Both the position numbers and the translations under genes were made by a program. 64,000 nucleotides of DNA, taken from assembly GCF_024518835.1 (NCBI RefSeq), contig NZ_JANIGO010000001.1, forward strand, positions 124,001 through 188,000. Direction: 5' to 3'. The notes below the pieces were generated by a model, which did not search any database, was not told the DNA's origin, and saw only the letters and a program-made list of their open reading frames with translations. This document shows positions 53,766 to 64,000 of the stretch, piece by piece. This DNA is from Limnobacter humi. GTDB taxonomy: Bacteria > Pseudomonadota > Gammaproteobacteria > Burkholderiales > Burkholderiaceae_B. Each line of letters starts with the position of its first letter. Within the stretch, counting starts at the first letter, position 1.

Positions 53766-54250
53766 ATAAATCCGACCGCCCTGCCCCCGTCAGTGTTGCC
53801 ATTCAGTGGGCACCGGAGGCTGACCACCCCCCGTTTTCGGAGGTGGACAATGCCCGTATTCGCCGCTGGGCCAAGGCCTGCTTTCGGGATGGGGCTGAAA
53901 TCACCATCCGCATGGTGGGCGACGAGGAAGGCCGACAACTGAACCGCGACTTCCGGGGCAAGGACTACGCCACCAATGTGCTGACCTTTCCCATGGACCT
54001 GCCCGACCTGGGCAGCGAGGCTGGTTTGCCCACGTTTATGGCAGACATCGTGATTTGCCCCGCCGTGGTCGAACGGGAAGCCAAAGAACAGGGCAAAGAC
54101 CCGATCGACCACTTGGCCCACCTGGTGGTGCACGGTTGCCTGCATGCGCAAGGCTATGTGCATGAACTGGACAGCCAGGCCGAACTGATGGAAGGCAAGG
54201 AAGTGGAAATTTTGAAGCGCTTCCGGATTTCAAACCCGTATGAGCGCTAG
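53762..54250 (+). CDS. ybeY: Endoribonuclease YbeY
   Basis: Metal-dependent RNase for 16S rRNA maturation and ribosome quality control. 162 residues starting at a TTG (53762) that overlaps the phoH TGA. The zinc motif reads HLVVHGCLHAQGYVH with H124, H128 and H134 in correct spacing; the usual GYDH is GYVH here. RDFRGKDYATNVLTFPM is the conserved core. The last 4 bp overlap the convergent PIN gene. Confidence 0.94.
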   Translation: MNKSDRPAPVSVAIQWAPEADHPPFSEVDNARIRRWAKACFRDGAEITIRMVGDEEGRQLNRDFRGKDYATNVLTFPMDLPDLGSEAGLPTFMADIVICPAVVEREAKEQGKDPIDHLAHLVVHGCLHAQGYVHELDSQAELMEGKEVEILKRFRISNPYER

Positions 54251-54633
54251 ACCAGCAATATAGTGGGGCTGTACTTCGCCACCGTGGCATCATGGGTCAG
54301 CAACTTCAAAGGTTCGGTCAGCGCCTGCGCCACCAGGATTCGATCAAACGGATCTTGGTGAATGGGCGGCAACTCGGCAACAGCCACCGCATGCTCCGCT
54401 TCAATGGGCAACAAAAAATATCCCGCTTGCTCAAAATACCGCTTGGCCTCACTGGCTGACACCGGCATTACGCCACGCCCAAGGCTGTGCTTGATGGCGA
54501 TTTCCCACAAACTGGCCACACTCACCCAAATGTGAGAACGACTGGATTCGATCCATTGGCGGGCTTGCTGCGGCAAACGGGGATGGTCTGTAATGGCCCA
54601 CAAGGCGATGTGAGTGTCCAAGATCAAATTCAT
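54247..54633 (-). CDS. PIN-domain toxin (VapC-like)
   Basis: 128-residue ribonuclease toxin candidate. PIN acidic residues: D6 (MNLILDTHIALW), E44 (VASLWEIAIKHSLG) and D94/D97 (HQDPFDRILVAQAL). This LDTHxxLW subgroup typically pairs with Phd/YefM-type antitoxins, exactly as here: its ATG overlaps the antitoxin stop. Expected to cleave RNA when the antitoxin is degraded. Confidence 0.9.
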   Translation of the reverse strand: MNLILDTHIALWAITDHPRLPQQARQWIESSRSHIWVSVASLWEIAIKHSLGRGVMPVSASEAKRYFEQAGYFLLPIEAEHAVAVAELPPIHQDPFDRILVAQALTEPLKLLTHDATVAKYSPTILLV

Positions 54634-54881
54634 GGTTTTTTGGTCTGCCCCACAAACAGCGCCTCAATGTGGGCATTGGCCACATCAATGTCGTCTGGAA
54701 CCTCAAACAGACCCTTGGCAATACCAATGCGCTGTTGAGACGCACCGTGGTCAATGGCGACCAACTTGGCAACGGGCCGGCCGTTGCGCGCGATGATGAT
54801 CTCCCTTTCACGGCCCTGCTCCAAGGCTTCCACCAAACGGGACAAATTGGACTTCGCTTCGAGCATGTTCACGGGTTGCAT
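54630..54881 (-). CDS. Phd/YefM-type antitoxin
   Basis: 83 residues. N-terminal Phd DNA-binding fold VNMLEAKSNLSRLVEALEQG, then EIIIARNGRPVAKLVAID; the C-terminal tail (LFEVPDDIDVANAHIEALF) would wrap the PIN toxin. Expected to autorepress. A 10-bp palindrome CTTAGCTAAG lies 17 bp upstream of the start. Confidence 0.9.
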   Translation of the reverse strand: MQPVNMLEAKSNLSRLVEALEQGREREIIIARNGRPVAKLVAIDHGASQQRIGIAKGLFEVPDDIDVANAHIEALFVGQTKKP

Positions 54882-55056: not shown

Positions 55057-55132
55057 GGGTCGTTAGCTCAGCCGGTAGAGCAGAGGACTTTTAATCCTTT
55101 GGTCGCAAGTTCGAATCTTGCACGACCCACCA
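55057..55132 (+). tRNA. tRNA-Lys (anticodon TTT)
   Basis: 76 nt with encoded CCA. Acceptor GGGTCGT pairs with ACGACCC; D-stem GCTC/GAGC; anticodon stem GAGGA/TCCTT with loop CTTTTAA, anticodon TTT at 55090-55092; T-arm GCAAG-TTCGAAT-CTTGC. It marks the border between core genes and the accessory region to the right; tRNA genes are common island integration sites, but I found no second copy of its 3' end within the window. Confidence 0.97.
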
Positions 55133-55173: not shown

Positions 55174-55379
55174 CGTTTCTGGGTGGTTTTTGGTCAACTG
55201 CCCGGGCGGACCTACTTCCGGTTTCCGAGGTTTTGGTTTAGCTTAGCGGCTAAATGTGCGAGTTTCGCCTTTGGTTTATTTGGTGAAACGGACGGCAAGC
55301 AATTGAAAGTAAATCAGTATTGGGCTCGCGATGATTTGTTCACATAAAGAGGTATCGCCAATATTGTTCGATATATCAA

Positions 55380-55386
55380 GTTAGCC
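55380..55386 (+). repeat. Integron core site (GTTAGCC) before the first cassette
   Basis: GTTAGCC fits the GTTRRRY recombination core and is identical to the core of the attC at 56174. It lies 10 bp before the ATG of the first cassette gene, where attI or the preceding attC would end. No matching RYYYAAC box is found within 130 bp upstream, so it may be attI or a remnant. The rest of 55174-55379 holds no gene I can see. Confidence 0.5.
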
Positions 55387-55396
55387 AATTCAAAAC

Positions 55397-56119
55397 ATGA
55401 CCACTATCCTTAAGCCGCACTTTGGTATCCCTCTAGAACGTGAATATGAGGGTTGGATCGTCCATCGAATTGAAAAATACTTTCGCCACATTGGGAAGAG
55501 CGTGCATGTATGGGCTGTTTCCCCTACGGATGAAGCAACCTGGCCAGCAGATGAAGCAATGATCGTTGGGGGGAAGCTATTTGGTTTGCAGTTTAAACAG
55601 CCCAAACTTGGCACTTACGCAGCAGGGACTTCTCCCGACTTTTCTCGCCTCAAATGGATACTTACTTCACCACCGGGGCAAGCTGCATTGGTAGCTTCAA
55701 ACCCAGAGATTTATTACTGCCTTCCAACATTCACTAATCGAGAATGGCGTCGAGAGTCGCTTCATCATGCTCTTTTTTGGCACCCAACGTCATCGGATTT
55801 GGCAAATCCCGTCGATCTGAATGTCTGGTACGAAAACCTAAGCACCAAGGTAAAGTCGAAAAACAACAATATCGTTCGACACCCAAGCTGTTTCCGGTGG
55901 GGGGAGTTCATTGAGCGTGTTCTTAATTGCCAACTCCCAGACGGCTTTGAGCGAGCGACACCTGCACACACAGTGTTGCAGCGTATCCGCCGAAGCTATA
56001 GCGAGTTTATGAACATACCCCAGGGAGAGCGGCCTGATCAGCAAAACCAGGACAGCCAAGACGGCAGCCTTGAGACTGTTCTTTACCTCTTCTATTTGCC
56101 AGAGGAATACTTTGGCTAA
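55397..56119 (+). CDS. Integron cassette protein of unknown function
   Basis: 240 residues, unrecognised. The stop codon TAA lies inside the RYYYAAC box of the following attC, the usual cassette arrangement. E18, D52-E53 and Q65-F66-K67 (in ADEAMIVGGKLFGLQFKQPK) could form a PD-(D/E)XK-like core: acidic residue, hairpin, then Q-x-K. That is a weak suggestion. The remainder is rich in Trp and His and ends in a hydrophobic ETVLYLFYLPEEYFG. Base composition is AT-richer than the core genes. Confidence 0.65.
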   Translation: MTTILKPHFGIPLEREYEGWIVHRIEKYFRHIGKSVHVWAVSPTDEATWPADEAMIVGGKLFGLQFKQPKLGTYAAGTSPDFSRLKWILTSPPGQAALVASNPEIYYCLPTFTNREWRRESLHHALFWHPTSSDLANPVDLNVWYENLSTKVKSKNNNIVRHPSCFRWGEFIERVLNCQLPDGFERATPAHTVLQRIRRSYSEFMNIPQGERPDQQNQDSQDGSLETVLYLFYLPEEYFG

Positions 56120-56180
56120 CCCATCATTCCACCTGACCTGCGCGAAAAGCCGCGCAGGCCGGTGAATTCAAACGTTAGCC
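56114..56180 (+). repeat. Integron attC site 1
   Basis: 67 bp. GGCTAAC (R'', 56114-56120) pairs with GTTAGCC (R', 56174-56180). Inside, ATTCCACC faces GGTGAAT with one unpaired base, and a central hairpin CCTGCGCG/CGCGCAGG folds over AAAAGC. This is the standard folded attC architecture. Confidence 0.88.
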
Positions 56181-56195
56181 ATCTCAAAAGACACT

Positions 56196-56852
56196 ATGCT
56201 GAACGCTTTCTGGCAATGGCTGCAGACCGTTAAACCACAACATGCGATAGCTGCATTTTGCGTGGCCATTGTCATAGGTCGATTTGTCTATCCGTCGCTC
56301 GTATATGACTCGTCGTCTCGCGACCTAATCCTTATCGCAATGCTCTGCATACTTGTGCCTGATCTTGCAAAGCTCATTTCGCGAGTCAACAAAGTGAAGA
56401 TTGGTGACAAAGAAATCGAACTCGCTGAAGCTCTTGATGATCTGGCAAAGAAGACAGAAGAGGCCGAAGAGCAATTGTCAAAATCAGAAGACGGCGGGTT
56501 CAAGCGTGCCACGCCAGAAGCGTCGCCAAACATTGACAAGTATTTGAGAGACCCAAGAGGCGGGCTTATTGCTGTCGCGGTAGACATTGAGGAACGAGTC
56601 CAAACTATTCTCACGCAAAACAACCTAGACACTTCCCGAGGCTACATGTCGCCTATGCACGCAGCAGAATTGCTAGCGCGGCGCGGGATCGTTGTTCGCG
56701 AGCTGCCAATTCTGATGAAAGATTTCTGGGTCGTTAGAAATCGAGCCTTTCACAGCAGCAACGTAAAGCTTAGTGAGCAAGACGTATATCGGCTAGTCGA
56801 TCTAGGTGTTCGTATTCTTGAACTCTTGGCAGTTACGCGCTCCGATGGCTAA
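56196..56852 (+). CDS. Cassette-encoded membrane protein with HEPN-like RX4H motif
   Basis: 218 residues. Two hydrophobic helices (about 16-33 and 42-58) anchor it, then a charged coiled coil (about 66-97), then a helical C-terminal domain. There, R181 and H186 (VVRNRAFHSSNVKL) make the R-X4-H pattern of HEPN ribonucleases, set between helices as in that fold. The layout suggests a membrane-tethered HEPN RNase, perhaps anti-phage. The stop lies in the next attC. No partner antitoxin is in this cassette, which argues for caution. Confidence 0.65.
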   Translation: MLNAFWQWLQTVKPQHAIAAFCVAIVIGRFVYPSLVYDSSSRDLILIAMLCILVPDLAKLISRVNKVKIGDKEIELAEALDDLAKKTEEAEEQLSKSEDGGFKRATPEASPNIDKYLRDPRGGLIAVAVDIEERVQTILTQNNLDTSRGYMSPMHAAELLARRGIVVRELPILMKDFWVVRNRAFHSSNVKLSEQDVYRLVDLGVRILELLAVTRSDG

Positions 56853-56914
56853 CCTCTCATTCCACCGGACCTGCGCGAAAAGCCGCGCAGGCCGGTGAAT
56901 TAAAACGGTTAAGC
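56847..56914 (+). repeat. Integron attC site 2
   Basis: 68 bp. GGCTAAC (56847-56853) and GTTAAGC (56908-56914) bound it. Over the 44-nt inner part it differs from attC 1 at one base (ACCG versus ACCT). Such near-identical attC sites are typical of sedentary chromosomal cassette arrays. Confidence 0.88.
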
Positions 56915-56919
56915 CTCTT

Positions 56920-57495
56920 ATGCCACTCCCCAAACGCGCATTTGTTAAGGTTGCAATAGTCGAGCTCTTGCAACAACACGGTGTGCTTCCAGTGCCAGAA
57001 GTACATCGCCTGATAGCTGAACGTTTTTCTCTCAATGCGGAAAAGGCCATCAAGCTAACTTCTCAGCCTCAGTACAAGGTTGAGATCCGCTGGGCAAGGC
57101 AGGAACTCGTTGGTGAGGGAATCATTGCTCGACCAGAAGTGTCTGGCAGAGGCCACTGGAAGCTCGCGGGCACGCTCAATGCACTTGACGTTTATCCCGA
57201 CGAAGCGATTCCAGATGGTCCCTTTAAGGAAGGGGCATCAAAGAAGGTAGCGGTCAATCGCTACGAGAGAAATGAGAAAGCGCGTCTAGCTTGCCTGAAG
57301 CACTATGGTTATAGCTGCAAGGCATGCGGCTTCAACTTCGAAACCGCATTTGGCGTGCTAGGCAGGCAGCAGATTCACGTCCATCACACCATGCCAATAT
57401 CTACCTTGGGCGTTGATTACCAAGTTGATCCCGTTGATCATCTGGTTCCTTTGTGTCACCGCCAATGTAAAAATGACCCACTAGCGCCAACTTAA
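56920..57495 (+). pseudogene. Mrr_N-HNH endonuclease cassette gene, cut by IS21-family element
   Basis: The open frame of 191 residues is native only to about residue 178; the IS begins at 57454 and supplies the last 13 residues and the stop. An N-terminal winged-helix resembling Mrr_N (about 4-83, ending GRGHWKLAG) precedes an HNH domain: C133 and C136 (SCKACGF), H155/H156 (HVHHTMPIS) and DHLVPL. The second Cys pair and final His of the HNH metal finger are lost, so the nuclease is probably dead. Third gene of the cassette series; its own attC is not found after the IS. Confidence 0.8.
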
Positions 57496-57542
57496 AATTG
57501 ACCCACCTGAGCAACAATTGCCGCTTTTTGGCGGCGCTTTGA

Positions 57543-59346
<1,804 letters not shown>

Positions 59347-59448
59347 ACAAAATCAGAAAGAATTGCTTGGGTGGGTCAAATTTACTTTGGCGTTGACGAA
59401 GCAAAGTGGGTCAAAATTCAAGCGGCATTGACATTGGAGTGACTAAAC

Positions 59449-61003: not shown

Positions 61004-62542
61004 ATGAATGGCATACCTGTTATTGACCTTTTTGCTGGCCCGGGAGGGTTGTGCGAAGGTTTTGCATCTCTAACAAAAGGTGAATCGAGATGCTTTGAGA
61101 TTCGTGTTTCGATTGAGAAAGATCCTATCGCTCATAAGACTCTTTCACTTCGTGCTCTGTTCCGGTCCTTTCCTGTAGGGAAGGTCCCTGCTGCCTACTA
61201 TCAATATATCAGAGGGGAAATTTCACGGGAGCAGTTGGAAAGTGACCCAGTTGTAATTCCGTATGTCAAAAAATCATATGCTGAAGCTAGGTGCGCCGAA
61301 TTGGGGAAAAATGATCATAGTGAGATTGACTCTTGGATTCGGGATGGCCTTGCAGGTGCCAAAGAATGGGTCCTGATAGGTGGACCACCTTGTCAGGCTT
61401 ATTCAATCGTTGGCCGATCGAGGATGCGCGGCAATAATCCAAAGGAATTTGAGTCAGACAAGCGACATTTTCTTTACAAAGAATACTTGCGAATAATCAA
61501 GGAATTTTCTCCCTCTGTCTTCGTAATGGAAAATGTAAAAGGAATGCTGACCTCACAGCATTCGGGCTCATTAATATTTAACCGAATACTTGAAGATCTT
61601 CAGTTACCCGGAAACGGTCATGAATATCTGGTCAGATCATTTGTTGTTCCTGGCGAGATTAGTGACCCGGATGACTTTGTTATCAAGTCTGAGAATTTTG
61701 GAATCCCACAATCTAGGCACAGGGTCATACTGTTTGGCATCAGGGCCGATATTGCTGAGTCGGTGCCAGACCTAGTTAACCGTCCCGAACGTTTCTCATT
61801 GGAGCAGTCACCCTTAGTGTGCGCCCGGGATGTTCTTGATGGGCTGCCCCCGCTTCGAAGCAAGCTTTCAAACCGTTATGACGGGATGACCGACTCTGTC
61901 GCAAATTGGCAAAAGGCTCTTACTAACGGACTAAAGGTCCTCGAGAAGAAAAAAAGTGCGGTTCCACTGCGGGTGTTGGAACGTGCACAGTGGGCGGTGA
62001 CTAAGTCATGGATCCATAAGTCAACTGGTGGACAGTTCATCCAGTCGGATATCTCCATGAATGAACCTCTGGCTTCTTGGTACCTCGACCCCGAGATAGG
62101 TGGCGTAACGCTGCATGAGACGAGAAGCCATATGGAATCCGATCTGCATCGGTATTTGTTTGCCTCCTCATTCGCTCGAGAGGAAAAGAGATCACCGAGG
62201 TTGAGTGACTTTCCTCAAGCCTTGTTACCCAACCATCAAAATTTGAACAACGAATCAACGCCATTTCTAGACAGATTCCGAGTGCAGTTGCGTAATCAAC
62301 CATCGACAACAATCGTGTCCCACATTTCCAAGGATGGGCACTACTACATTCATCCCGAACCCTCACAGTGCCGTAGCCTAACGGTTCGCGAGGCTGCGCG
62401 CTTACAGACCTTCCCCGATAACTACTTTTTTGAGGGCAATAGAACACAGCAGTATCACCAAGTGGGCAATGCTGTCCCACCGCTATTGGCTAGGAAAATC
62501 GCTGAAATTGTCCTCAGGCTGTTGCAGTCGGCAGGTCTTTGA
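61004..62542 (+). CDS. DNA (cytosine-5-)-methyltransferase
   Basis: 512 residues. SAM-binding motif I VIDLFAGPGGLCEGF (6-20), catalytic motif IV IGGPPCQAYS (C130), motif VI VFVMENVKG, motif VIII PQSRHRVILFG, motif IX LTVREAARLQTFPDNYFF and motif X YHQVGNAVPPLLARKIA are complete. Between motifs I and IV there is an insert of about 50 residues compared with small enzymes such as HhaI. A long recognition region (about 240-430) implies a specific site, unknown. Likely the modification partner of a restriction system; converges on the AIPR gene. Confidence 0.94.
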   Translation: MNGIPVIDLFAGPGGLCEGFASLTKGESRCFEIRVSIEKDPIAHKTLSLRALFRSFPVGKVPAAYYQYIRGEISREQLESDPVVIPYVKKSYAEARCAELGKNDHSEIDSWIRDGLAGAKEWVLIGGPPCQAYSIVGRSRMRGNNPKEFESDKRHFLYKEYLRIIKEFSPSVFVMENVKGMLTSQHSGSLIFNRILEDLQLPGNGHEYLVRSFVVPGEISDPDDFVIKSENFGIPQSRHRVILFGIRADIAESVPDLVNRPERFSLEQSPLVCARDVLDGLPPLRSKLSNRYDGMTDSVANWQKALTNGLKVLEKKKSAVPLRVLERAQWAVTKSWIHKSTGGQFIQSDISMNEPLASWYLDPEIGGVTLHETRSHMESDLHRYLFASSFAREEKRSPRLSDFPQALLPNHQNLNNESTPFLDRFRVQLRNQPSTTIVSHISKDGHYYIHPEPSQCRSLTVREAARLQTFPDNYFFEGNRTQQYHQVGNAVPPLLARKIAEIVLRLLQSAGL

Positions 62543-62710
62543 ATTCTCCAGAAACCTAATTACCTTAAATCCAGCGAGCTAACCCTGCAGGCTGGACTTC
62601 AAGGGAGGCAGACGTCAAGTTGCACACCCAGATCTTCAGAACACACCATTCAAGTGCATGAAGTCTGGAGCGGGTTGTCACATACCTCAAACTATACCGG
62701 CCATTTTCTG

Positions 62711-64000
62711 TCAGCCGTTGTAGCGAACCTCTGGAATTCCTGTGGCTACAGGGGAGTAAGAAGCAGCGAAAACTGCATCCCTACACTCTGGCTTTTTGGC
62801 CCATTCCGAAATCATCTTACCACCAGCACTTTCGTGGAGAACCTCACTGACTTGGCGCGCCCATATCTCGATCTGTTTAAGGAGTTCATGGGAGACTGCC
62901 TGATTGCTCCAGATCTTATCGAGATCAATGCGATCACCCAACATCTTGGCGGTCACTGATACGGTATATGCCGTGATGTTTGCTTGGAAAGCTTGGAACA
63001 TGGGGCGGATCAGTTTTTGAGTATCGCGGTAGAGCTTTGCCTTCGCGATCATGGATTTGAAGTCGGCAGTAGAGGGCAGTTTGACTTCCTGTCCCTCCGG
63101 AGCAACGAGTGCTGACATGAAACGGTCAAAGTTTTTCTGGGAGCCGAGGCTGACGATCTCTGGTTTCTGAGCCCAGGCATTCAGATACTTTGCAAGATCC
63201 GTTTTGGTCAGGCGGCGACTCGTCGGGATCGCGTCCTTGATCTTCTTTAGCTTGGCAGGTGTTGTTCCTTCCCTAGCCAACAAGGTATTGTAGCTTCCTG
63301 CAGCGCGCTCATAGAACCACTGACTGACTCCATCTGGGCAGTACACATTACGGGAAATCTTTTCGATCTCCACATGGAATGGCTTGTTGGCTGAGAGGTC
63401 TGACTGTCTAACAGCGTTCTGGCTGTTCGCAAATCTGGAAATGTCTGAAACCAGGGCCTCTTCCTTGGCAGGGTCCTGAACTCTCATGACAATGATCTTT
63501 GCGGCCACTCTGACGCCGGACAAGTCGATTTCAGGATACTTCTTCTTTGTGAAGTACAGGGATGCAGTGGTCTGCCCACCGTTGACGATTTGAAGACCCT
63601 TGATCCATGCGATTCCGATCATACCGTCCAAGGAGTTCCCCAGCCTTATTTCGTCGGCGACCATAACAATGCCGTTGTTGTAGGCCATGAAGCGTTCAGG
63701 TGAATTTCTGAGAGTGTTTTGTATGCCGGCATTCACGCCTTTGCCCTTGACGCTCAAAAACGAACGAACGTTGGCTTCAAGAAGTCGCGCACCAAATTTT
63801 TCGTAAAGCAGGCGAAGAGCGTCACCGGGAACAGCGGTCAATGCGTAGTCATAGTCATCGTTCTGCCCATTGACGAATACGCATGGTAAGGGCTGACCAG
63901 ACAACTCATTGAAATCGATGACCAATTCGTCACGCGGCTTACCTTCAGAGATGTGGCGGTATAGCCGCTCAATATCCATAACCTCCAGCCTGACAGCCTT
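62711..64000 (-). CDS. AIPR family phage-resistance protein (5' end outside window)
   Basis: At least 429 residues; the frame stays open through 64000 with KAVRLEV before the Met at 63979, and family members are about 600 residues, so the true start lies beyond the window. AIPR pattern: ARLLEANVRSFLSVKGKGVN, NTLRNSPERFMAYNNGIVM, KGLQIVNGGQTTASLYFTKK, and ISRFANSQNAVRQSDLSANKPFH. These are hallmarks of the abortive-infection (AbiR/AIPR) family. It is commonly the last gene of operons with Z1 helicase, DUF4420 and a GHKL ATPase. The stop lies 168 bp from the methyltransferase stop. Confidence 0.88.
   Translation of the reverse strand, partial: KAVRLEVMDIERLYRHISEGKPRDELVIDFNELSGQPLPCVFVNGQNDDYDYALTAVPGDALRLLYEKFGARLLEANVRSFLSVKGKGVNAGIQNTLRNSPERFMAYNNGIVMVADEIRLGNSLDGMIGIAWIKGLQIVNGGQTTASLYFTKKKYPEIDLSGVRVAAKIIVMRVQDPAKEEALVSDISRFANSQNAVRQSDLSANKPFHVEIEKISRNVYCPDGVSQWFYERAAGSYNTLLAREGTTPAKLKKIKDAIPTSRRLTKTDLAKYLNAWAQKPEIVSLGSQKNFDRFMSALVAPEGQEVKLPSTADFKSMIAKAKLYRDTQKLIRPMFQAFQANITAYTVSVTAKMLGDRIDLDKIWSNQAVSHELLKQIEIWARQVSEVLHESAGGKMISEWAKKPECRDAVFAASYSPVATGIPEVRYNG

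What the first reader, a model, noticed from the sequence alone, without database searches (positions are those of the whole stretch)
55380..57453. Integrase-less integron cassette array next to tRNA-Lys
Two attC sites (56114-56180, 56847-56914) with the full R/L-box plus central-hairpin design differ by one base over 44 inner positions. Both take the stop codon of the preceding gene into the R'' box, and a third core site precedes the first gene. That is at least three cassettes with no intI in the window, a CALIN-type cluster in a betaproteobacterium, cut by an IS21 element.
Basis: partly seen in the sequence, partly recalled or inferred. Interest (0 to 1): 0.72.

Follow-up and report, generated by a model that had tools for sequence, protein, structure and literature searches.

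The report
Integrase-less cassette array with own attI
A small array of integron gene cassettes in a Limnobacter bacterium has its own insertion site but no integrase gene beside it, and its relatives carry up to six such insertion sites scattered round one chromosome, which suggests that one integrase once loaded genes at many places.

Summary
A covariance model trained on attC sites of other species finds exactly two attC sites in the window, at the stated coordinates (57.0 and 44.3 bits). The 'third core site' is a diverged attI, not an attC (55337-55384, 35.4 bits). The cluster is thus an attI-headed array: two complete cassettes and a third cut by an IS21-like element, near the left end of a ~19 kb island at tRNA-Lys.

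'No intI in the window' is right, but the genome has a larger integron 275 kb away whose intI lacks its C-terminal catalytic part.

The larger finding is genus-wide: 48 attI copies in 14 of 16 Limnobacter genomes, up to six each. Within 3.5 kb, 36 of 48 are followed by an attC in the same direction and none is preceded by one. Full-length IntI was found in 1 of 16 genomes. Twenty-eight copies match all (23) or part (5) of a ~280-bp unit without recognisable intI. Bases at the attI junction match the first cassette's own attC in 23 of 28, as expected of inserted circles. IntI acting in trans is inferred.

The parts
55057..55132 (+). tRNA-Lys (TTT), integration target of the island
   Evidence: ARAGORN, Rfam RF00005 75.4 bits
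55088..55133 (+). last 45 bases of tRNA-Lys plus one, repeated exactly (46 bases) at G000 C1:198108-198153, 19 kb downstream: island ends
55337..55384 (+). attI site (diverged); crossover between G55380 and T55381
   Evidence: only hit of attI model R2, 35.4 bits, E 5e-10; 41 of 52 bases equal the consensus
55381..56174 (+). cassette 1
   Evidence: bounded by G|TT of attI and of attC1; own 5' core complementary to R''
55397..56119 (+). ORF of cassette 1, 240 aa, no family found
56114..56180 (+). attC of cassette 1
   Evidence: 57.0 bits with model R1
56175..56908 (+). cassette 2
   Evidence: bounded by the G|TT of attC1 and attC2; own core 4/4 against R'' versus 2/4 for the following core
56196..56852 (+). 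ORF of cassette 2, 218 aa, no family found
56847..56914 (+). attC of cassette 2
   Evidence: 44.3 bits with model R1
56909..57465 (+). truncated cassette 3; ORF start 56920, Mrr_N domain; 3' end seems missing and no attC found
   Evidence: PF14338 E 4.3e-7; weak PADLOC mREase_IV match (E 5e-4) reaching profile position 255 of 277; no third attC
57466..59433 (+). IS21-like element (istA-like ORF 57543-58463, istB ORF 58555-59346); ends read by eye, no target duplication seen
   Evidence: PF01695 E 1.3e-90, rve E 2.8e-13; inverted repeat 57485-57528 / 59349-59392, 75%

Best explanation
The feature is an integron cassette array that sits on its own attI site and lacks an integrase gene. By the established integron mechanism, an integron integrase (IntI) inserted circular cassettes one at a time between G55380 and T55381 of this attI, recombining the folded bottom strand of each cassette's attC with it; the newest cassette lies next to attI. 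The site belongs to a multicopy attI family of the genus Limnobacter: attI has been dispersed over the chromosome (28 of 47 copies profiled match all or part of a ~280-bp unit without a recognisable intI), and a single IntI encoded elsewhere would have served the copies in trans. Here the attI lies about 200 bp inside a ~19 kb island integrated at tRNA-Lys, so the island is the likely vehicle. In this genome the only intI found, 275 kb away, lacks its C-terminal catalytic part, so the array is now frozen; an IS21-like event removed the end of cassette 3. Shown: attC and attI identity, the junction signature of inserted circles, dispersal of attI, the island repeat, the broken intI. Inferred: action of IntI in trans, the island as vehicle of this copy, the frozen state.
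For: attC covariance hits with a model trained on other species. attI model hit in the window, window copy not in the training set. The same attI lies beside intI in this genome, G010 and G012 and beside the full-length intI of G015. 48 attI copies of 34 bits or more in 14 of 16 genus genomes, 1-6 per genome, against a best of 24.1 bits, partial, in 252 other genomes of the family. 36 of 48 have an attC (E<=0.1) within 3.5 kb downstream on the same strand; 0 have one within 3.5 kb upstream or on the opposite strand in the sequence held. Junction signature: the four variable bases after G|TT equal the complement of the cassette's own R'' in 92 of 117 rows, the following core does in 19; first cassettes at attI 23 of 28 versus 4 of 28; type I attIs 11 of 14 versus 1 of 14 (three of these 14 are the same cassette in three genomes); 1000 shuffles of cores reach at most 2.62 of 4 against 3.66 observed. 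At one type I locus in five genomes (G004, G006, G009, G010 linked by wider synteny; G005 linked to G004 and G006 by the immediate flank) the first 1.5 kb after attI share nothing by blastn or tblastx at 1e-4, so contents have changed there, with no intI piece found in cis. IntI of this genome: residues 1-210 align, 211-318 are missing, about 18 C-terminal residues seem to follow. Island: 46-base repeat of the tRNA end, Mza defence genes inside. Further attIs lie 0.4-0.5 kb downstream of tRNA-Arg, tRNA-His and tRNA-Pro genes.
Against: No recombination was observed. The window attI is the third weakest of the 48 (35.4 bits; 41/52), and its upstream sequence matches neither the type I nor the type II profile, so how this copy arrived is unknown. 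12 of 48 attIs have no attC within 3.5 kb (6 of those had less than 3.5 kb of sequence). Of the 28 type I matches 5 are partial. Two of 15 further block copies found, both in G014, carry no attI. 12 copies match the type II profile, and intI pieces were found beside nine copies besides the full-length one: these are ordinary decayed integrons. The own-core match was not perfect in 25 of 117 rows and the following core matched better in 9; 34 of 151 rows were not usable. Full-length IntI was found in only 1 of 16 genomes, so trans supply would be mostly past, and loss of an intI once in cis cannot be excluded for any single copy. Many genomes are metagenome assemblies. Cassette clusters with no attI found also exist (e.g. 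G001 C10). Differences between arrays at one locus could in part come from exchange of whole segments rather than from IntI.
Confidence: 0.6

Rival explanations
1. Ordinary decayed integron: a complete integron (intI, attI, cassettes) once stood here and lost intI by deletion, for example when the island end formed.
For: intI is broken or reduced to pieces beside nine other attIs. Only about 200 bp remain between tRNA-Lys and attI, so intI could have been deleted.
Against: No intI remnant is seen beside the window attI: the upstream sequence matches neither profile and tblastn at E<=0.01 finds nothing. For type I copies elsewhere, a shared left edge in 23 of 28 argues that the unit spread without intI rather than losing it each time.
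Confidence: 0.3
2. attG-type insertion: cassettes from the resident integron inserted at a chance chromosomal G|TT site, leaving a CALIN.
For: IntI can use attG sites (Loot et al. 2024, known here only by its title in a reference list, and by a mention in PMC12901181). A window attC is 94% identical to one in the main array.
Against: Similarity to the genus attI extends over 48 bases, nearly all upstream of the crossover, which a chance G|TT site would not show.
Confidence: 0.03
3. Rearrangement: a piece of the main integron, including a copy of its attI, was moved to the tRNA-Lys region by IS or homologous recombination.
For: Both arrays are in one genome and share an attC subfamily. IS elements lie in the island.
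Against: The window attI (41/52 to consensus) and the main one (49/52) are well diverged, and the window's upstream sequence does not match the intI-proximal profile that the main one matches, so this would have to be old. It does not explain the other 46 copies.
Confidence: 0.06
4. Dispersed REP or terminator elements that merely look like attC and attI.
For: The type I unit is itself a dispersed repeat of ~280 bp.
Against: attC covariation (0 of 500 shuffles), polarity relative to attI and the own-core signature are specific to cassettes.
Confidence: 0.01

Closest known systems
CALIN (cluster of attC sites lacking an integron integrase; IntegronFinder 2.0, PMC9024848, passages read)
   Same: Two attC sites, no integrase gene nearby.
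   Different: This one is headed by a recognisable attI of a multicopy, genus-specific family; the paper says attI is not detected outside class 1.
Chromosomal integron with remote CALINs in Xanthomonas (PMC12444791, passages read)
   Same: intI at one locus, often broken; cassette clusters at other loci (seven are reported there for the well-sampled species).
   Different: The passages read (12 of 17 places) describe no attI copies at the remote clusters; here 48 attIs are placed genome by genome.
[quoted passage not shown]
   Same: A precedent for an attI-headed, integrase-less array.
   Different: One case in one prophage; here a repeated unit with up to six attI copies per chromosome across a genus.
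Delta-attI-type gene cassettes of class 1 and 2 integrons (PMC12901181, passages read)
   Same: attI sequence can be moved by an integron integrase as part of a cassette.
   Different: There attI pieces lie downstream of the gene and replace attC; here an attI lies upstream and heads arrays.
Mza defence system (PADLOC)
   Same: MzaB, C, D and E homologues lie in the same tRNA-Lys island.
   Different: A neighbour of the array, not part of it.

Membership tests
Integron cassette (attC site) | R''/R' and L''/L' inverted repeats with a central stem, found by covariance model | tested here: met
   57.0 and 44.3 bits with R1; covariation score of the training set reached by 0 of 500 shuffles
Integron cassette (attC site) | R'' complementary to the 5' end of its own cassette (scar of the circle) | tested here: met
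   4/4 for both window cassettes; 92 of 117 rows genus-wide versus 19 of 117 for the following core
Integron cassette (attC site) | Recombination by an IntI through the bottom strand | not testable with these tools
   needs an assay
CALIN | At least two attC sites | tested here: met
CALIN | No integron integrase nearby | tested here: met
   TIGR02249 search of the own genome at E<=0.001: nothing in C1:124001-188000; the one good match is 275 kb away
Complete integron | Intact intI in cis | tested here: not met
attI site | Sequence shared with attI sites next to intI of the same lineage, ending at G|TT | tested here: met
   35.4 bits; same core beside intI in G000, G010, G012, G015
attI site | Bound and recombined by IntI | not testable with these tools
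   needs an assay
Type I dispersed attI unit (defined here) | ~230-bp upstream block (-280 to -53) recognised by profile | tested here: not met
   window copy has no hit at E<=10; 28 of 47 copies profiled do, 23 over nearly the full length
attG secondary-site insertion | No attI similarity upstream of the crossover | tested here: not met
tRNA-integrated genomic island | Direct repeat of the tRNA 3' end at the far side | tested here: met
   46 identical bases at C1:198108-198153
tRNA-integrated genomic island | Tyrosine integrase gene inside | tested here: inconclusive
   none noticed by eye among ORFs listed, nor a match in the IntI-profile search; no dedicated integrase search was made

The most novel reading that the evidence does not exclude
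In Limnobacter the integron is a distributed system. The cassette-insertion site attI has become a dispersed multicopy chromosomal element, carried partly by tRNA-targeting islands. One IntI, probably under SOS control and acting in trans, loaded and exchanged cassettes at up to six attI platforms per genome, so that many 'integrase-less' clusters were active arrays rather than remnants.
Probability: 0.5. Interest if true: 0.75.

Novelty: new variant of a known kind. Interest (0 to 1): 0.6.

Why it matters
CALINs have been proposed to be degraded integrons (stated in PMC9024848, passages read). If an attI heads them and cassettes change at an attI with no intI in cis, the unit of integron evolution is one integrase with many platforms, and searches that look only for intI, or that ignore attI outside class 1, would miss it. 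The genus offers a natural test of a trans-acting integron integrase and of how attI moves, with one genome (G015) that has a full-length IntI frame and four attIs.

Tried and rejected
Rfam scan for attC: no attC family was reported; only the tRNA and a chance match were listed. A simple R-box and fold scan gave many false candidates, missed the second window attC, and was replaced by the covariance model. REP or terminator reading rejected. attG insertion rejected. I suspected by eye that the window attI had a decayed intI start upstream; nhmmer and tblastn did not support it, so I do not claim it. By eye the type I unit also seems to keep the first bases of intI (ATGAACAG on the other strand), but tblastn found no intI in it. 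I looked for an empty site of a type I unit at the tRNA-Arg locus. G010 shares the island end up to about the first 20-odd bases of the unit and then diverges; G014 and G009 hold different cargo. No target duplication or clean empty site could be read, so the way the unit moves is unresolved. The left edges of the units do not all begin at G|TT, which gives no support for IntI itself moving the unit. No match of the unit in plasmids. The cassette proteins gave almost no family. Promoter scan of the array: one weak site inside attI (55339-55367), against 2.1 expected by chance, so no promoter is claimed. One literature search was spoilt because 'attI' matched 'attitude'.

Full report
WHAT IS IN THE WINDOW. 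The window is C1:124001-188000 of a 3.24 Mb, 29-contig genome (G000). A covariance model (R1) built from 33 attC sites of other genomes of the genus, none from this genome, finds them with 57.0 bits (E 9.4e-12) and 44.3 bits (E 1.2e-8) and nothing else in 64 kb at E<=10. The training alignment shows a covariation score that none of 500 shuffles reaches. The inner 44 bases differ at one position and the stop codons lie in R'' as described.

THE THIRD CORE SITE IS AN attI. Window 55337-55387 matched many places in sister genomes, including bases directly beside intI in this genome, in G010 and in G012. A sequence model of 28 unique sites (R2, window copy left out) finds one site in the window, 55337-55384, 35.4 bits, E 5e-10. 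It equals the consensus at 41 of 52 bases, against 49 for the attI at the intI of the same genome. In the 23 copies aligned first, identity stops sharply at the G|TT, where cassettes begin.

THE ARRAY. Cassette 1 is 55381-56174, cassette 2 is 56175-56908, and cassette 3 starts at 56909 and is cut near 57465 by an IS21-like element (IstB E 1.3e-90; inverted repeats). I read no target duplication at its ends, and no third attC was found. In each cassette R'' is complementary to the 5' end of the same cassette, which is the scar of its circular form: 4 of 4 variable bases for both window cassettes, where the following core matches 2 of 4 for cassette 2. This explains the imperfect R' of the second attC. 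Cassette proteins 1 and 2 match no Pfam, PADLOC or NCBIfam family at the limits used; protein 3 has an Mrr_N domain and a weak match to a type IV restriction enzyme (E 5e-4).

CONTEXT. The last 45 bases of tRNA-Lys plus one recur exactly at C1:198108-198153, followed by a hairpin like the one that follows tRNA-Lys in several sister genomes, as read by eye. The array thus lies about 200 bp inside a ~19 kb island, together with homologues of Mza defence proteins B, C, D and E and a cytosine methyltransferase. The tRNA-Lys of the other 15 genomes is not followed by attI within 1.4 kb (best local score 8-11, against 32 here). Other attIs also lie just downstream of tRNA genes: 0.4 kb from tRNA-Arg in G001, 0.5 kb from tRNA-His in G005, 0.4 kb from tRNA-Pro in G010 (in the 32 loci scanned).

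THE INTEGRASE. The own genome holds one good IntI match, at C1:455.5 kb, 275 kb from the window array. Its first 210 residues are 78% identical to the protein of G015; residues 211-318 are absent and about 18 C-terminal residues seem to follow in the DNA. The missing part includes the HTLRHS and IYTHV segments, which align with the solved Vibrio integrase 2a3v (that these carry the catalytic His-Arg-His-Tyr is recalled). The locus has its own attI and seven attCs listed (an eighth, weak one). A LexA-box-like CTGT-N8-ACAG overlaps the intI start codon here and in G015 (about 0.2-0.3 expected by chance per 20 kb locus). At E<=1e-50, 4 of 16 genus genomes have an IntI match; two pass the family cut-off, G015 over its full length and G010 over positions 1-231 of 315.

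A DISPERSED attI FAMILY. With model R2 the 16 genus genomes hold 48 attI copies of at least 34 bits in 14 genomes: G000 2, G001 2, G002 1, G003 2, G004 2, G005 5, G006 3, G009 3, G010 5, G011 6, G012 4, G013 5, G014 4, G015 4; G007 and G008, the two least complete assemblies, have none at that score. In 252 other genomes of the family the best match is 24.1 bits and partial (run with stricter filters). Of 48 copies, 36 have an attC (E<=0.1) within 3.5 kb downstream on the same strand; of the 12 others, 6 had less than 3.5 kb of sequence. None has an attC within 3.5 kb upstream or on the other strand in the sequence held; a scan of 23 further loci, mostly the upstream sides, 339 kb, found one attC, which belongs to another counted array. 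Of 47 copies whose upstream sequence was profiled, 28 match a block from about -280 to -53 (type I; 23 nearly in full, 5 in part; eight trained the profile), 12 match the intI-proximal block (type II; eight trained it), and 7, the window included, match neither; the 48th, of G015, lies beside its intI. Of 15 further block copies found by similarity, 2 (both in G014) carry no attI. Pieces of intI were found beside nine of the 47 copies (eight and G009c), none of them type I. Among the 23 copies compared for flanks, one type I locus is shared by four genomes, one type II locus by four, and others by three, two or one.

WERE CASSETTES REALLY INSERTED AT THESE SITES? In 151 rows built from attI-to-attC chains, 117 had three canonical cores. 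The cassette's own 5' core matches its R'' perfectly in 92, the following core in 19; own is better in 82 and worse in 9; shuffled cores average 2.45 of 4 (maximum 2.62 in 1000) against 3.66 observed. For first cassettes, whose 5' core abuts attI, the counts are 23 and 4 of 28. For type I sites they are 11 and 1 of 14 usable out of 18; three of the 14 are one cassette shared by G001, G005 and G006. At the type I locus of G004, G005, G006, G009 and G010 the first 1.5 kb after attI share nothing by blastn or tblastx at 1e-4, although G004, G005 and G006 share the immediate upstream flank. So cassettes were inserted at attIs with no recognisable intI in cis, and contents there differ between species.

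READING. The cluster is a CALIN by definition, but one headed by an attI, in a genus where attI is multicopy. The best account is insertion by an IntI acting in trans (inferred), transport of at least some attIs by tRNA islands (inferred from position), and, in this genome, an array frozen since intI was broken (inferred). How the type I unit moves is unresolved: no clean empty site or target duplication was found.

LITERATURE. Remote CALINs at seven loci are described for Xanthomonas (PMC12444791, passages). [quoted passage not shown] attI pieces can move within cassettes (PMC12901181, passages). IntegronFinder 2.0 states that attI is poorly described and not detected outside class 1 (PMC9024848, passages). 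The attG paper (Loot et al. 2024) was seen only in a reference list. I saw no report of a dispersed attI family or of Limnobacter integrons in the listings of searches of an open-access library; each listing shows only the top rows, one search was spoilt by a word clash, and subscription papers are mostly not held.

Noticed in passing
window 61004-63979 and L180 492-5936: The tRNA-Lys island carries an Mza-type defence system: PADLOC MzaE, MzaD, MzaC and MzaB homologues plus a cytosine methyltransferase.
   Followed up: partly
L206 4150-4210 (IMG/VR contig) and L166 (Limnobacter sp. P1 contig42): A phage-like contig has a ~40-base near-identical piece of the genus attI between two divergent genes that look, by eye, like phage repressors; no attC in the 10 kb held. 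Either a captured attI or a clue to where part of attI came from.
   Followed up: partly
L148, L118, L186, window: Several attI copies lie 0.2-0.5 kb downstream of a tRNA gene (Lys, Arg, His, Pro), which points to islands as vehicles.
   Followed up: partly
L017 9497-9512 and L136 91-106: LexA-box-like CTGT-N8-ACAG overlapping the intI start codon in G000 and G015.
   Followed up: no
L017 2288-6428: The main array of this genome carries cassettes that look like defence genes: a CBASS-like nucleotidyltransferase (below cut-off, E 2e-10) with a partner gene, and an AAA protein weakly like a retron Eco8 effector.
   Followed up: no
window 54247-54881: PIN-domain toxin and Phd/YefM antitoxin gene pair just upstream of the tRNA-Lys.
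   Followed up: no
L145 (G014 C3:823733-824447): Two type I units back to back in inverted orientation; one lacks most of the attI.
   Followed up: no
window 57460-57470 and 59428-59440: The IS21-like element shows no target duplication by eye, and the end of the cassette-3 gene and its attC are missing, as if a deletion ended at the element.
   Followed up: no
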